Positions 1 to 18,146 of a stretch of DNA of 64,000 nt are shown piece by piece (within the stretch, counting starts at the first letter, position 1; every line of letters begins with the position of its first letter). Made by a program: the position numbers and the translations under genes. The notes under the pieces are model-generated. The model saw nothing but the letters and a program-made list of their open reading frames with translations. It was not told where the DNA came from and ran no database searches. The stretch is from contig NZ_JAAIKE010000001.1 of the NCBI RefSeq assembly GCF_010915705.1, positions 310,001-374,000 on the forward strand, written 5' to 3'. Source of the stretch: Pseudotabrizicola algicola (GTDB lineage: Bacteria > Pseudomonadota > Alphaproteobacteria > Rhodobacterales > Rhodobacteraceae).

Positions 1-1
1 G

Positions 2-481
2 ACGCGGGTTCTGGTGGCCACCACGGTGATCGAGGTCGGGGTGAATGTGCCCAACGCCTCGATCATGGTGATCGAGCGGGCCGAAATCTTCGGTCTTGCG
101 CAGTTGCACCAGTTGCGGGGGCGCGTCGGGCGCGGGGCGGCGCAATCGACCTGCCTGCTGCTGTATCAGGCGCCGCTGAGCGAGGCCGGAGAGCGGCGGC
201 TGACCACGATCCGCGACACCGAGGACGGGTTCCGCATTGCCGAGGAAGATCTGGCGATGCGGGGGGCGGGTGACCTGATCGGCACGGCGCAATCGGGGCT
301 GCCGCGCTTTCGCGTGGCCGATCTGGAGCGGCAGGGGGCGCTGATGGCGGTGGCGCAGTCGGATGCGCGGGCGCTGCTGACGGTCGACCCCGGGCTGACC
401 AGCCCGCGCGGGCAGGCGGCACGGCTGCTGCTCTGGCTGCTCGATCAGGACCGCGCGATCCGGCTGATCGCCGTGGGCTGA
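2..481 (+). CDS. recG: ATP-dependent DNA helicase RecG, C-terminal part (5' end outside window)
   Basis: This is the last ~159 codons of RecG, the helicase that remodels stalled forks and branched DNA. The reading frame is open from base 2, so the start lies upstream of the window. Helicase motif V (ATTVIEVGVNVPNA) and motif VI (QLHQLRGRVGRG) of a superfamily 2 enzyme are visible. They are followed by a RecG-type tail with EEDLAMRGAGDLIGTAQSGLP. Mfd shares part of this pattern, but the GTAQSG segment and the short tail favour RecG. No terminator is evident after the stop, and the next transcription signal is a LexA-type box 27 bases on. Confidence 0.93.
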   Translation, partial: TRVLVATTVIEVGVNVPNASIMVIERAEIFGLAQLHQLRGRVGRGAAQSTCLLLYQAPLSEAGERRLTTIRDTEDGFRIAEEDLAMRGAGDLIGTAQSGLPRFRVADLERQGALMAVAQSDARALLTVDPGLTSPRGQAARLLLWLLDQDRAIRLIAVG

Positions 482-507
482 CCAAAAATCTTAATTTGTT
501 CCCGAAT

Positions 508-522
508 GTTCTTAAAAAGTTC
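508..522 (+). promoter_or_regulatory. LexA-type SOS box (GTTC-N7-GTTC)
   Basis: The sequence GTTCTTAAAAAGTTC is an exact direct repeat GTTC-N7-GTTC, the form known for LexA of alphaproteobacteria including Rhodobacter. Another GTTC lies at 498-501, and two GAAC elements (GTTC on the other strand) lie at 537-540 and 547-550. A possible -35 (TTTACA, 523-528) follows directly, so a bound repressor would cover the promoter of the small gene at 581. That it works as a LexA site is inference from the match and its position. Confidence 0.6.
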
Positions 523-580
523 TTTACAGACACGGGGAACGTGTGAGAACAATATGGCAACAAGCAAGCAGGAGGATGCC

Positions 581-700
581 ATGGTTGCCCAAGTCAAGGA
601 TATCGTCACCCGGTCCCGCGCGACGCTGATCGAAGATCTGGCGGGTGTCGCGGCCCTGTTTGCCACGCTTTTTGTCTGCCTGTCCTTTACCTCGTTCTGA
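581..700 (+). CDS. small membrane protein of 39 residues, possibly SOS-controlled
   Basis: I do not recognise a named family. The start ATG at 581 is chosen because GGAGG lies at 571-575, five bases upstream. An in-frame ATG at 554 has no such site. The protein has an amphipathic basic N-terminus (MVAQVKDIVTRSRATLIEDL) followed by one hydrophobic segment (about residues 21-37), ending in SFTSF. This is the plan of a single-pass inner-membrane peptide. A LexA-type box overlaps its likely promoter and a strong terminator follows, so it appears to be its own transcription unit. By analogy with SidA of Caulobacter, an SOS-induced small membrane division inhibitor, a role in damage response is conceivable. 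There is no sequence evidence for that function. Confidence 0.6.
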   Translation: MVAQVKDIVTRSRATLIEDLAGVAALFATLFVCLSFTSF

Positions 701-781
701 CACTGCCTGCGGTCTGCCCGATCGCGCGCCCCGCACCTGTCCCCAAGTGGTGCCCCTTGCGCGCAACAGACACGCCACTTG

Positions 782-814
782 CCGCCGCATGTCACTGACA
801 TGCGGCGGTTTTTT
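782..814 (+). terminator. intrinsic terminator after the small membrane protein gene
   Basis: A near-perfect stem of about 12-13 bp (CCGCCGCATGTCA at 782-794 with TGACATGCGGCGG at 796-808) is followed by six T residues. It ends the plus-strand unit of the 39-residue protein and sits just before the 3' end of the convergent chemotaxis gene. Confidence 0.9.
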
Positions 815-827
815 CACTCAGGGGCCG

Positions 828-2234
828 TCATTCAAAGGCATAGGCCAGACGCAGGCCGCCCCAGTGCCGCCCCTTGACGCGGATCGGGGCGGAGACGTCT
901 TTCATCATTGCAAACGTGCCGCCGCCCATGTCGCGGCGATAGACTTGCAGCAGGAAGGGTTCGGTATTGCGTCCGGCCCCCAGACCGACGCGGTCGTCGA
1001 AGATGCGGCGGTTGCGGCAATGGGCGGCGTTCCAGACTGGATCACGGCTTTGCGGGGCGCTGAACTTTGCGTTGTGGGTCGGCAGATAGCCGTTGCGGTC
1101 CACCGCCGCGCAGAACACGATTCGCGGGTCCATCGTCAGGACGGTTTCCTGCACCGCCGGGAAGAGCCTGTCCGTCAGATCGGTGAACGGGGCGAGCAAC
1201 TGTTCGGGGTTGGTGCCGGGGATCGGGCGATAGCGCTGGTCGAACAGGGTGGCGAGCGGGATCTCGCCGCTGTCAACGGCCGCGTCCAGCCGCGCGCCGA
1301 GTTGTCTGGCGGCGTCGCGCACAAGGTTGATCATCGGCCCGTCCGCCGAGCGCGCGCCCAGTTGCACCGCCTTTTGCACCAGCCTTTCGCTCAGCCCGAT
1401 CAGGCCCGAGGTTTGTTCGCGCGCGCGGGTCATGCCGGTGGCGGTGGTGTCGGACGCGGTCAGCAATGCGTCAAACAGGGGGGTGAAGGTGTCATTCGCG
1501 GCCTGCACCCTTGCGGCGGATTGCGCGATGCCTTGCGCCGCCATCTGTCCCGAGCGGACGCTTTGCGCGATGTCACCCAGCGCGGTGTCGATCCCTGCCG
1601 CGCCGGTCAGAGCATCGCCCGCCCGCACCGCCACCTGTTCCGCCTCGGTGCGCAGCCCGCCGATCCCGTTCGTCAGCCCGTCGATGGCATGGCGGATAGC
1701 CTCTGTCGCTTTTGCGGTGCGACGCGACAGGGCGTTGATTTCATCCGCAACCACGGCAAAGCCGCGACCGGCGCTGCCGGCATGGGCCGCTTCGATCTTG
1801 GCGTTGATGGCAAGGATGTTCACCTGCATGGCGATTTCACCAATCTGGTGCGCCGATTTCTGCATCTCGGTCAGGGTGCCCGCCACCGAGAGCATCCGCG
1901 CGGCCAGGGTCTGCACCCATTCGGCAACGTGCTGGCTTTCCACGTTGCTGTCGCGGATCTGGCGCGAGGAGTGTTCCACGCCTTCCAGCGTCTGCGCGAC
2001 GGTCTGCACCAGAACATCCGTGGCCTCGCGCACGGCGGCGTTCTCGCGTGCGACCGCCTCGACCGCCACCTTGGCGCGCTGCATCAGGGCGCGCTGGTCC
2101 TGTGTCGTGGTATCAAGGGTGTCGATGAAACCGGCGACCGCGACCACATCATGCCCGAGGTGGATAGCGGTGCCGTAAAGATGGTCGAGCACGTCGAGGT
2201 CGGGTTCAGCTTCCACCGGCTTCAATACGTTCAT
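828..2234 (-). CDS. soluble methyl-accepting chemotaxis protein with C-terminal sensor domain
   Basis: This 468-residue chemoreceptor has the cytoplasmic signalling domain in the N-terminal half. The hairpin tip is seen at [20 protein letters not shown], followed by [17 protein letters not shown]. No transmembrane segment is visible, so the receptor is probably cytoplasmic or only loosely membrane-associated. The C-terminal ~100 residues hold a conserved block ([42 protein letters not shown]) found at the end of a class of alphaproteobacterial receptors, presumably a ligand-binding module. The order signalling-then-sensor is the reverse of a classical receptor. The start at 2234 is supported by an AGAGG about seven bases upstream. 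No other chemotaxis gene is nearby. Confidence 0.85.
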
Positions 2235-2286
2235 CTCTGGCCTCTTGCTTTGGAACCGTTAAAGACGGGCCGGAGAGACGGTGCGT

Positions 2287-2748
2287 TTAGGCATCCCCCG
2301 CATTTTTCTGTGCAGCATCCGCGCTGCTGGCGGCCTCTGCGGCGGCCTCGATTGCCAAGAGGATGGAGGCGTGGCGGTTCTTGTAGTCGCGGGCAGGGGT
2401 CAGCACCTCAAAGCCCGCGAAGGGGGCGGGCGGCACGGGGCCCGAGGATTTGAGCATGGCGCGCAAGGCGTCGCGCCCCGCCGCAAGCTCTGCCGCGGTG
2501 CGGCCCAGAACCGCCTGACCCAGCAGGCTGGCCGCGGCCTGACCCAAGGCACAGGCCTTGACGTCCTGCGCGAAGGCGGTGACGCGGCCCGCTTCCATCA
2601 CCACATCCACCGTCACGGTCGAGCCGCAAAGGGGCGAGCGCTTGCGCACCGTCGCCTGAGGCTGGGGCAGGCGGCCGTGGTGCGGGATATCCGCCGCGAG
2701 TTCGAGGATGCGGCCGGAATACAGGCTGATCAGGTCACTGTCGCTCAT
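2287..2748 (-). CDS. iron-sulfur cluster assembly scaffold-like protein (IscU/SufU type)
   Basis: This 153-residue protein has the IscU/NifU N-terminal fold signature. The first ligand motif is SPLCGSTVTVDV (Cys41) and the second is VKACALGQAAASLL (Cys66). The third cysteine of classical IscU/SufU is not present in the rest of the chain, so cluster assembly by the standard route is uncertain. The C-terminus contains PAR-DYKNRHASILLAIEAA, which resembles the family end. It is divergent from hisI, with 87 bases between the starts. Function as a real scaffold is inference; the family membership is fairly clear. Confidence 0.78.
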   Translation of the reverse strand: MSDSDLISLYSGRILELAADIPHHGRLPQPQATVRKRSPLCGSTVTVDVVMEAGRVTAFAQDVKACALGQAAASLLGQAVLGRTAAELAAGRDALRAMLKSSGPVPPAPFAGFEVLTPARDYKNRHASILLAIEAAAEAASSADAAQKNAGDA

Positions 2749-2835
2749 TTAACGAGACCGCTGGGGTGCATGGCGCTTTTCCTTCTGACCTGTTTTAGAT
2801 AGACCGATCCCCCGCAGACGCCAAGGAGAACGCGC

Positions 2836-3207
2836 ATGGCTTTTGACCCCGCAAGCCTAAAGTATGATGCGAACGGATTGATTCCCTGTATCGCGCAGGA
2901 TGACGACAGCGGCGAGGTGCTGATGATGGCATGGATGAACGCCGATGCGGTGGCTCGGACGCTGGAGACGGGCCGCGTGACCTATTGGTCCCGCTCGCGC
3001 GCGGCGTTCTGGGTCAAGGGCGAGACGTCGGGGCATTTGCAGCATCTGGTGGAGTTGCGGGTCGATTGCGACCGTGATTGCCTGCTGGTTCGGGTGCGCC
3101 AAGAGGGTCCGGCCTGCCACACCAACCGCCGGTCGTGCTTTTACACCGTGGTGCGCGACGGGGCCGAGGTGATTGTCATGGAACCTATGGCTGCGACGAA
3201 TAGTTGA
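2836..3207 (+). CDS. hisI: phosphoribosyl-AMP cyclohydrolase
   Basis: HisI opens the purine ring of phosphoribosyl-AMP in histidine biosynthesis. The 123-residue length is normal for a stand-alone HisI without the HisE domain. The family metal sites are visible: the Mg-binding DCDRD (Asp77, Asp79, Asp81) and the Zn cysteines Cys78, Cys94 and Cys101 in GPACHTNRRSC. The substrate region WSRSRAAFWVKGETSGH is intact. The start at 2836 follows AAGGAGA with good spacing. No other his gene is in the window. Confidence 0.96.
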   Translation: MAFDPASLKYDANGLIPCIAQDDDSGEVLMMAWMNADAVARTLETGRVTYWSRSRAAFWVKGETSGHLQHLVELRVDCDRDCLLVRVRQEGPACHTNRRSCFYTVVRDGAEVIVMEPMAATNS

Positions 3208-18070: not shown

Positions 18071-18146
18071 GGCGCACCGTGGAATCAGAACGGGGCCAGC
18101 GTGACCGCCGACCCCGTCTTGTGCAAGTCTGTTCTTTATCTGTTCT

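What the first reader, a model, noticed from the sequence alone, without database searches (positions are those of the whole stretch)
498..700. A 39-residue membrane protein behind a perfect LexA-type box
GTTC-N7-GTTC (508-522) is the alphaproteobacterial LexA consensus. Three further GTTC/GAAC half-sites lie within 50 bases. It overlaps the likely promoter of a self-contained unit that ends in a strong terminator and encodes a single-pass membrane peptide. Small SOS-induced membrane proteins such as SidA of Caulobacter block division, so this could be an unrelated Rhodobacter counterpart.
Basis: partly seen in the sequence, partly recalled or inferred. Interest (0 to 1): 0.72.

Follow-up and report, generated by a model that had tools for sequence, protein, structure and literature searches.

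The report
Conserved DNA-damage-controlled small membrane protein
Next to a DNA-repair gene sits a tiny, so far unnamed membrane protein, shared by most Rhodobacteraceae examined, whose control switch carries the signature of the DNA-damage repressor LexA; it is probably made when DNA is damaged and may pause cell division, but that has not been tested.

Summary
The box is real: GTTCTTAAAAAGTTC, 508-522. By count alone it is chance level: 2 in the window against 1.36 expected, 108 in the genome against 184 for a control pattern. Conservation makes it significant. The 39-aa ORF (581-700) belongs to an unnamed family found in 255 of 295 Rhodobacteraceae genomes, without Pfam or NCBIfam match. 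Of 130 orthologous loci, 128 keep GTTC-N7-GTTC within 200 nt upstream (shuffles 0-1, CTTG control 0) and 124 have recG upstream. Conversely, 115 of 118 sites found by promoter motif alone are followed by the ORF. In 26 of these genomes the repeat, on either strand, stands before lexA in 25, recA in 24, uvrA in 25. LexA control is very likely. The protein is one membrane helix with a one-faced conserved stripe, T15-D19-G22-L26-L30-L34, suggesting helix-helix binding. A SidA-like division block is the best guess, untested. Against: 11 of 19 genomes without detected LexA keep the protein, and where I could look most keep the box. Verdict: a new, clade-wide member of a known kind.

The parts
2..481 (+). 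3' end of recG (ATP-dependent DNA helicase), the conserved upstream neighbour
   Evidence: NCBIfam RecG models, best E 4e-84; RecG C-terminus found upstream of the orthologue in 124 of 130 loci
498..522 (+). Upstream operator: GTTC-N6-GTTC-N7-GTTC; 508-522 is the perfect LexA-type direct repeat GTTC-N7-GTTC
   Evidence: GTTC-N7-GTTC within 200 nt upstream in 128 of 130 orthologous loci, N6 pair in 114 of 130; promoter profile
523..528 (+). -35-like TTTACA directly abutting the operator
   Evidence: conserved TTTAC(A) in the promoter profile of 128 loci; function inferred
544..552 (+). Conserved TGAGAACAA, presumed -10 region at fixed distance from the operator
   Evidence: (columns 35-43); -10 role inferred, not found by the sigma-70 scan
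547..561 (+). GAAC-N7-CAAC: possible second, imperfect LexA operator over the start region
   Evidence: GAAC-N7-NAAC at this fixed position in 115 of 127 anchored loci; lexA promoters also have NAAC seven bases after the second GAAC of their box in 19 of 25, so it may instead be a general start-region feature
537..540 (+). Extra GAAC half-site, not a conserved feature of relatives
   Evidence: no GAAC in the corresponding columns 29-32
570..575 (+). Ribosome-binding site AGGAGG
   Evidence: a purine-rich motif of this kind before the start in 121 of 130 loci
581..700 (+). 39-aa single-pass membrane protein
   Evidence: family in 255 of 295 genomes; dN 0.09, dS 0.56 against the congener
781..809 (+). 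Intrinsic-terminator-like hairpin followed by T run

Best explanation
A self-contained SOS gene of the Rhodobacteraceae. LexA bound to the GTTC-N7-GTTC repeat, which abuts the -35-like TTTACA (and perhaps to GAAC-N7-CAAC over the start region), keeps the promoter off. After DNA damage RecA-stimulated LexA self-cleavage frees it and a 38-42-residue, presumably N-in/C-out, single-helix inner-membrane peptide is made. The peptide uses one conserved helix face (T15, D19, G22, L26, L30, L34) to pack against another membrane helix. The likeliest partner is a late division protein (the FtsW/FtsI/FtsN level, as for Caulobacter SidA), so that division is delayed during repair. Shown here by comparison: conserved gene, conserved operator, conserved interface pattern. 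Inferred: LexA binding (about 0.87), damage induction (about 0.82), partner binding rather than pore formation (about 0.7), a division target (about 0.5).
For: Operator retained in 128 of 130 loci, spacing-specific (N7 128, N6 114; N5 0, N8 1; CTTG-N7-CTTG 0); shuffles 0-1 of 130. The 6 of 130 loci with no RecG match upstream keep the box. Reciprocal search by promoter motif: ORF follows in 115 of 118. Same repeat on either strand at lexA 25 of 26, recA 24 of 26, uvrA 25 of 26; the genome's own uvrA has GTTCTTAATCTGTTCTT. Apparent site turnover: G227 and G015 lack the GTTC-N7-GTTC repeat but have GAAC-N7-GAAC near the start region. First-profile protein hits in 244 of 276 genomes with lexA and 11 of 19 without, Fisher p 0.0014. 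D19 and G22 in 130 of 130, T15 128, L34 129; conservation periodicity peaks at 100 degrees, permutation p 0.001; hardly any charge after residue 22. One helix, residues 2-38, mean pLDDT 86.7, single-sequence model. LexA motif of alphaproteobacteria as GTTC-N7-GTTC (PMC3323433, passages); SidA as a 29-aa SOS-induced FtsW binder (PMC4211646, passages).
Against: No experiment. 11 of 19 genomes without a LexA hit at 1e-8 still have the protein. Box state in these 11: G049 (100% complete, all candidates scored), G028 and G159 keep GTTC-N7-GTTC, G013 has the strict promoter pattern just upstream of its ORF, the listing shows the strict pattern with a spacer of this gene's type also in G069, G150, G158, G160 and G196 (place not checked against the ORF), and G147 and G157 lack the strict pattern. 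So the box does not visibly decay where LexA is not detected; either LexA is missed or missing from the assembly there, or something else reads the box. The AT-rich spacer is conserved too and differs from the spacers at lexA and recA. The conserved GAAC-N7-NAAC may be only start-region sequence. No homology to any known division inhibitor was shown. The helix periodicity also fits self-association.
Confidence: 0.53

Rival explanations
1. SOS-controlled, but acting on the membrane itself: a TisB- or DinQ-like peptide that depolarises the inner membrane and slows the cell into tolerance.
For: Same promoter evidence as the best explanation. Size and single hydrophobic helix fit. DinQ is an SOS-regulated single-transmembrane toxic peptide (PMC3567139, abstract start in the listing).
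Against: Hardly any charged residue in the membrane part (mean 0.015 after residue 22), and a one-faced, nearly invariant stripe points to specific helix packing. RNA control of the kind known for such toxins was not looked for.
Confidence: 0.2
2. SOS-controlled, but the peptide modulates another membrane process that follows damage, such as gene transfer agent release, DNA uptake, or stability of a membrane enzyme.
For: The family is confined, as far as sampled, to Rhodobacteraceae: 5 of 289 class-level genomes hit, four of them of this family (the window's own included) and one a marginal hit in a 526-aa frame. LexA is tied to gene transfer agents and CtrA there (PMC6473078, passages).
Against: The conserved neighbour is recG, in 124 of 130 loci; no link to gene transfer agents was seen, though wider neighbourhoods were not searched.
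Confidence: 0.17
3. The conserved upstream element is not a LexA site but a promoter read by another regulator, and the peptide is not an SOS protein.
For: The whole stretch, including AT-rich spacer and start region, is conserved. Box kept in genomes where no LexA was detected, G049 above all. By number alone the box is not in excess in the genome.
Against: Exact N7 spacing, the same repeat at lexA, recA and uvrA of the same genomes, the oppositely oriented repeat in G227 and G015, weaker retention of the protein where LexA is not detected.
Confidence: 0.12
4. Chance box in front of a spurious short ORF.
For: Box count alone is chance level in window and genome.
Against: 255 of 295 genomes have the protein; dN/dS about 0.17 against the congener; box in 128 of 130.
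Confidence: 0.01

Closest known systems
SidA (Caulobacter crescentus), LexA-controlled division inhibitor
   Same: Very short inner-membrane protein under LexA, in an alphaproteobacterium (passages of PMC4211646)
   Different: 29 residues against 38-42 in 129 of 130 members here; sequence relation not tested; target of the present protein unknown
DidA (Caulobacter crescentus)
   Same: Small single-pass damage-induced membrane protein that blocks division (passages of PMC4211646)
   Different: 71 residues and SOS-independent; the present gene has the LexA-type repeat
SosA (Staphylococcus) and other SOS-induced small division inhibitors of Gram-positives
   Same: SOS-induced division inhibitor (SosA: abstract start in the listing; YneA named from recall)
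   Different: Other phylum; no sequence comparison made here
DinQ and TisB (Escherichia coli)
   Same: SOS-regulated single-transmembrane peptides (DinQ: abstract start of PMC3567139; TisB from recall)
   Different: Toxic membrane peptides with RNA control (control by RNAs: abstract start for DinQ); the present protein has a one-faced conserved stripe, and RNA control was not looked for
phrog_22979, phage protein family of unknown function
   Same: Matches the 41-residue copy on contig C25 of this genome, E 5e-4
   Different: Does not match the chromosomal protein itself at E 0.1

Membership tests
LexA (SOS) regulon | LexA-type direct repeat GTTC-N7-GTTC in the promoter, conserved across relatives | tested here: met
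   128 of 130 loci; 9 of 12 more diverged loci
LexA (SOS) regulon | Same motif at the accepted LexA targets of the same genomes | tested here: met
   lexA 25 of 26, recA 24 of 26, uvrA 25 of 26; 26 of the 30 genomes of the first set were given, four fragmentary ones were left out
LexA (SOS) regulon | Gene absent or box decayed where LexA is absent | tested here: inconclusive
   Protein in 11 of 19 genomes without LexA hit against 244 of 276 with, p 0.0014. But the box is not decayed in the LexA-lacking genomes that I could see (G013, G028, G049, G159), and one search scored at most 20 candidates per genome
LexA (SOS) regulon | LexA binding and RecA-dependent induction by damage | not testable with these tools
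   needs gel shift, RT-qPCR
SOS-induced small membrane division inhibitors (SidA kind) | Short single-pass membrane protein | tested here: met
   by prediction: 38-42 residues in 129 of 130, one of 36; one helix; hydrophobic maximum at 20-36
SOS-induced small membrane division inhibitors (SidA kind) | Blocks division on expression; binds a late division protein | not testable with these tools
   needs expression and two-hybrid tests
SidA protein family | Sequence homology to SidA | not tested
   no SidA sequence was at hand; class-level profile search of 289 genomes gave no credible hit outside the bacterial family
Known curated protein families | Match in Pfam, NCBIfam, PADLOC, PHROGs or PDB sequences | tested here: not met
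   no match for the window protein in Pfam, NCBIfam, PADLOC or PHROGs; no PDB chain matches profile A1 at E 1

The most novel reading that the evidence does not exclude
The Rhodobacteraceae have their own, nearly universal SOS checkpoint peptide, unrelated by descent to SidA, SulA, YneA or SosA, which stops division by packing one invariant helix face (T-x3-D-x2-G-x3-L-x3-L-x3-L) against a divisome membrane helix; a phage-like region of this genome carries a mimic with the same core, suggesting that phages exploit the same target.
Probability: 0.38. Interest if true: 0.78.

Novelty: new member of a known kind. Interest (0 to 1): 0.62.

Why it matters
None of the titles and abstract starts listed by nine literature searches (open-licence library only, one list cut at 20 of 53) describes how Rhodobacteraceae arrest division after DNA damage. 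This gene is a ready candidate: found in 255 of 295 genomes of the family (267 with the diverged forms accepted), so short that annotation may miss it, and with a LexA-type repeat kept in 128 of 130 loci. In D. shibae and R. capsulatus LexA is tied to CtrA and gene transfer agents (PMC6473078, passages), so a damage-induced membrane effector would also bear on which cells release or receive DNA. The invariant D19 and G22 give point mutants for a direct test.

Tried and rejected
Genome-wide excess of the box: rejected as evidence, the pattern is not above its controls. CtrA site (TTAA-N7-TTAA, recalled): a near match in the window, but the TCATAAA spacer found in a number of orthologues destroys it while GTTC stays. 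Known RNA family in window 1-3000 at gathering scores: none. Sigma-70 consensus scan of 400-900: no promoter. Second box of the window, 18131-18145: read in context between genes with ndk and transketolase matches; no comparative support sought. Phage or plasmid spread of the gene: no phage record, one Pseudorhodobacter replicon, no viral contig with the promoter. Hit G023 was dropped as a chance match inside a 470-aa frame. The two 10-base stretches fetched (G045, G179) were of no use.

Limits of the sample: the 130 loci are 30 from the best hits and 100 of the matches listed, so the weaker-scoring part of the 255 genomes was looked at only through a few loci; the 12 diverged loci come from genomes outside the 255. 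For the lexA, recA and uvrA comparison 26 of the 30 first-set genomes were given; the fragmentary G021, G028, G091 and G166 were left out beforehand, and later showed that of these G028 (86% complete) has no LexA hit. The 2x2 table was put together by me from the tables and is not corrected for phylogeny. The profile uses the 128 loci that have the repeat, so its 100% half-site columns are so by construction. In one search one of the 128 lay outside the 110-nt stretch used, hence 127. Start codons were written as M in my scripts whatever the codon. One of the 130 (G161) has a stop inside the profile match and was counted as its shortened 36-residue form.

Full report
1. The observation. The perfect direct repeat GTTCTTAAAAAGTTC lies at 508-522 and three further half-sites lie at 498-501, 537-540 and 547-550. 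Behind it come TTTACA (523-528), TGAGAACAA (544-552), AGGAGG (570-575) and a 39-codon ORF at 581-700, then a terminator-like hairpin at 781-809. Upstream is the end of recG (NCBIfam RecG, best E 4e-84) and downstream, convergent, a gene with chemotaxis-receptor matches. By count alone the repeat is unremarkable: 2 in the window against 1.36 expected, 108 in the 4.49-Mb genome against 184 for the reversed control pattern.

2. The protein is a family. A search of 295 genomes of the same bacterial family with the single sequence gave 88 genomes with a match. A profile of 30 sequences gave 255 of 295, and 227 of 260 among good-quality genomes. Of the 40 without a match, a broader profile found a hit at E 0.05 in 13; I accept 12 as small ORFs, most behind the same kind of promoter, and reject one. 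In 289 genomes sampled over the class, 5 had a hit: four of this bacterial family, the window's own included, and one marginal hit inside a 526-aa frame. No Pfam, NCBIfam, PADLOC or PHROGs family matches the window protein, and no PDB chain matches the profile. Against the congener G135 the CDS has 9 synonymous and 6 non-synonymous codon changes in 37 codons, dN 0.09 and dS 0.56, so it is a constrained coding gene.

3. The operator is kept with the gene. I examined 130 orthologous loci (30, 100 fetched). GTTC-N7-GTTC lies within 200 nt upstream in 128, and GTTC-N6-GTTC in 114. The other spacings from 3 to 13 give 0 to 5, and CTTG-N7-CTTG gives 0. Twenty dinucleotide shuffles of the upstream regions gave 0 or 1 of 130. 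RecG precedes the gene in 124 of 130, and the 6 without a RecG match keep the box; one of these six lies near a contig end, so not all need be true rearrangements. The two loci without the GTTC-N7-GTTC repeat are G227, which has GAAC-N7-GAAC at the start region, and G224, with one GTTC half-site before TTTAC. Of the 12 diverged orthologues 9 have GTTC-N7-GTTC within 150 nt of the match; a tenth (G015) has GAAC-N7-GAAC instead; G211 and G201 have neither. Together that is 137 of 142 with the GTTC form and 139 of 142 with either orientation.

4. The promoter. Aligned on the box, 128 loci give GTTC-rCaAAT-GTTC-TyAwAAA-GTTC-TTTACA-N14-TGAGAACAAa-N3-gCAACA, at fixed spacing (the half-sites at 0-3 and 11-14 are 100% by construction, the one at -10 to -7 is 91-95%). 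At the start region GAAC-N7-NAAC is present in 115 of 127 loci, GAAC-N7-CAAC in 104. In the window this is 547-561. The lexA promoters show NAAC seven bases behind the second GAAC of their own box in 19 of 25, so this element is either a second weak operator shared with lexA or a general start-region feature. I cannot tell which. The strict pattern GTTC-N7-GTTC-TTKAC occurs in 231 of 295 genomes; the reversed control occurs in about 40 of 295, by my own count of the table. Not every one of the 231 need be this gene.

5. Reciprocal test. The 80 titles shown name Rhodobacteraceae genera or Rhodobacterales, except three named only to class or phylum (family membership of the genera is from recall). 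In 115 of the 118 the ORF follows. Of the 3 misses, two run off the end of the stored stretch and one (a Paracoccus) has a more diverged small hydrophobic ORF.

6. Is it LexA? In 26 genomes with the gene (26 of the 30 of the first set; four fragmentary ones left out), GAAC-N7-GAAC lies before lexA in 25 and before recA in 24, and GTTC-N7-GTTC before uvrA in 25. The uvrA box of this genome is GTTCTTAATCTGTTCTT, close to the present one. GTTC-N7-GTTC as the alphaproteobacterial LexA motif is stated in PMC3323433 (passages), and lexA, recA and uvrA as part of the conserved core of the regulon in its section 7 (read). That section also reports that recG of some alphaproteobacteria appears to be LexA-regulated; the site described here lies behind recG. 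The LexA DNA-binding domain was found in 276 of 295 genomes. The small protein was found by the first profile in 244 of those 276 and in 11 of the 19 without LexA, Fisher p 0.0014; among good-quality genomes 222 of 251 against 5 of 9, p 0.017. This fits but does not prove dependence: phylogeny was not corrected for, and one search scored at most 20 candidates per genome. Told against the reading: where I could look, the box is not decayed in genomes without a LexA hit. G028, G049 and G159 keep it, G013 has the strict pattern just upstream of its ORF, five more show the strict pattern with this gene's type of spacer (G069, G150, G158, G160, G196, place not checked), two do not (G147, G157). Several of these assemblies are incomplete, but G049 is 100% complete with all its candidates scored.

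7. What the protein looks like. Of 130 sequences 129 have 38 to 42 residues, and one has 36. D19 and G22 are invariant in 130 of 130; T15 is T in 128, L34 is L in 129, L30 in 126, L26 in 123; position 37 is P in 118 of 129 (the window has T). Conservation over residues 10-36 peaks at 100 degrees per residue, permutation p 0.001, as expected for a helix with one constrained face. After residue 22 charge is almost absent (mean 0.015 residues). The single-sequence AlphaFold model is one helix, residues 2-38, mean pLDDT 86.7, pTM 0.42. I infer a membrane helix with the N-terminus inside and a partner bound along the T-D-G-L-L-L face. The orientation is an inference from K6 and R11; the mean net charge of the first 22 residues is near zero. 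A self-dimer is possible too.

8. Mechanism. Committed reading: LexA off-switch, damage on-switch, membrane helix that binds and holds another membrane helix, probably of the late divisome, so that division waits. SidA, the main SOS division inhibitor of Caulobacter, is a 29-aa inner-membrane protein that interacts with FtsW, and DidA is a 71-aa SOS-independent one (PMC4211646, passages). Likelihoods: LexA control 0.87, specific partner 0.7, division target 0.5. The main rival, a pore-forming peptide, is less likely because the helix lacks charges and has one nearly invariant face.

9. A mimic. The genome has a second, 41-residue copy of the core on contig C25 (58% identity over 24 residues, E 0.0099), with D, G and the leucines in place. 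No box was seen within 130 nt upstream of its assumed GTG start. Neighbouring ORFs match phage families (ParB-like phrog_3264, E 2e-74; others of unknown function), and the copy itself matches phrog_22979, E 5e-4. A phage that carries a mimic of a division inhibitor would make sense, but this is a lead only.

10. Novelty. The kind (LexA-controlled small membrane peptide) is known; this family appears not to be named. Nine literature searches in the open-licence library listed no paper whose title or abstract start describes it; one search listed 20 of 53 papers. I saw passages of four papers and read one section of one of them. Most subscription papers are not held, and the R. capsulatus LexA paper could not be read, so prior description cannot be excluded.

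Noticed in passing
L002 (contig C25 of the same genome), complement of 1501-1572: A 41-residue copy of the protein's core, without a box within 130 nt upstream, in a region of phage-like genes (ParB-like phrog_3264); it matches phrog_22979 of unknown function at E 5e-4.
   Followed up: partly
window 18131-18145: Second GTTC-N7-GTTC of the window (GTTCTTTATCTGTTC), between genes with nucleoside diphosphate kinase and transketolase matches; conservation not tested.
   Followed up: partly
L034 and L035: GTTC-N7-GTTC near what reads like an imuA-imuB junction (identified by eye only) and, about 1.2 kb on, another at the start of a gene with an SRAP (SOS-associated peptidase) domain.
   Followed up: partly
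L021, L398 (genome G227): In this genome the GTTC-N7-GTTC repeat is missing both at the small gene, which has GAAC-N7-GAAC instead, and at uvrA, while lexA and recA have theirs.
   Followed up: partly
lexA promoters L075-L100: A third half-site NAAC stands seven bases after the LexA repeat in 19 of 25 lexA promoters, like the start region of the small gene.
   Followed up: partly
genomes G029, G059, G167, G195 (each at least 93% complete): Good-quality Rhodobacteraceae genomes with neither a LexA hit nor a hit to the small protein; candidates for loss of the SOS system.
   Followed up: no
genome G049 (locus L139): Complete genome without a LexA hit that keeps the small protein and an intact GTTC-N7-GTTC; unexplained.
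   Followed up: partly
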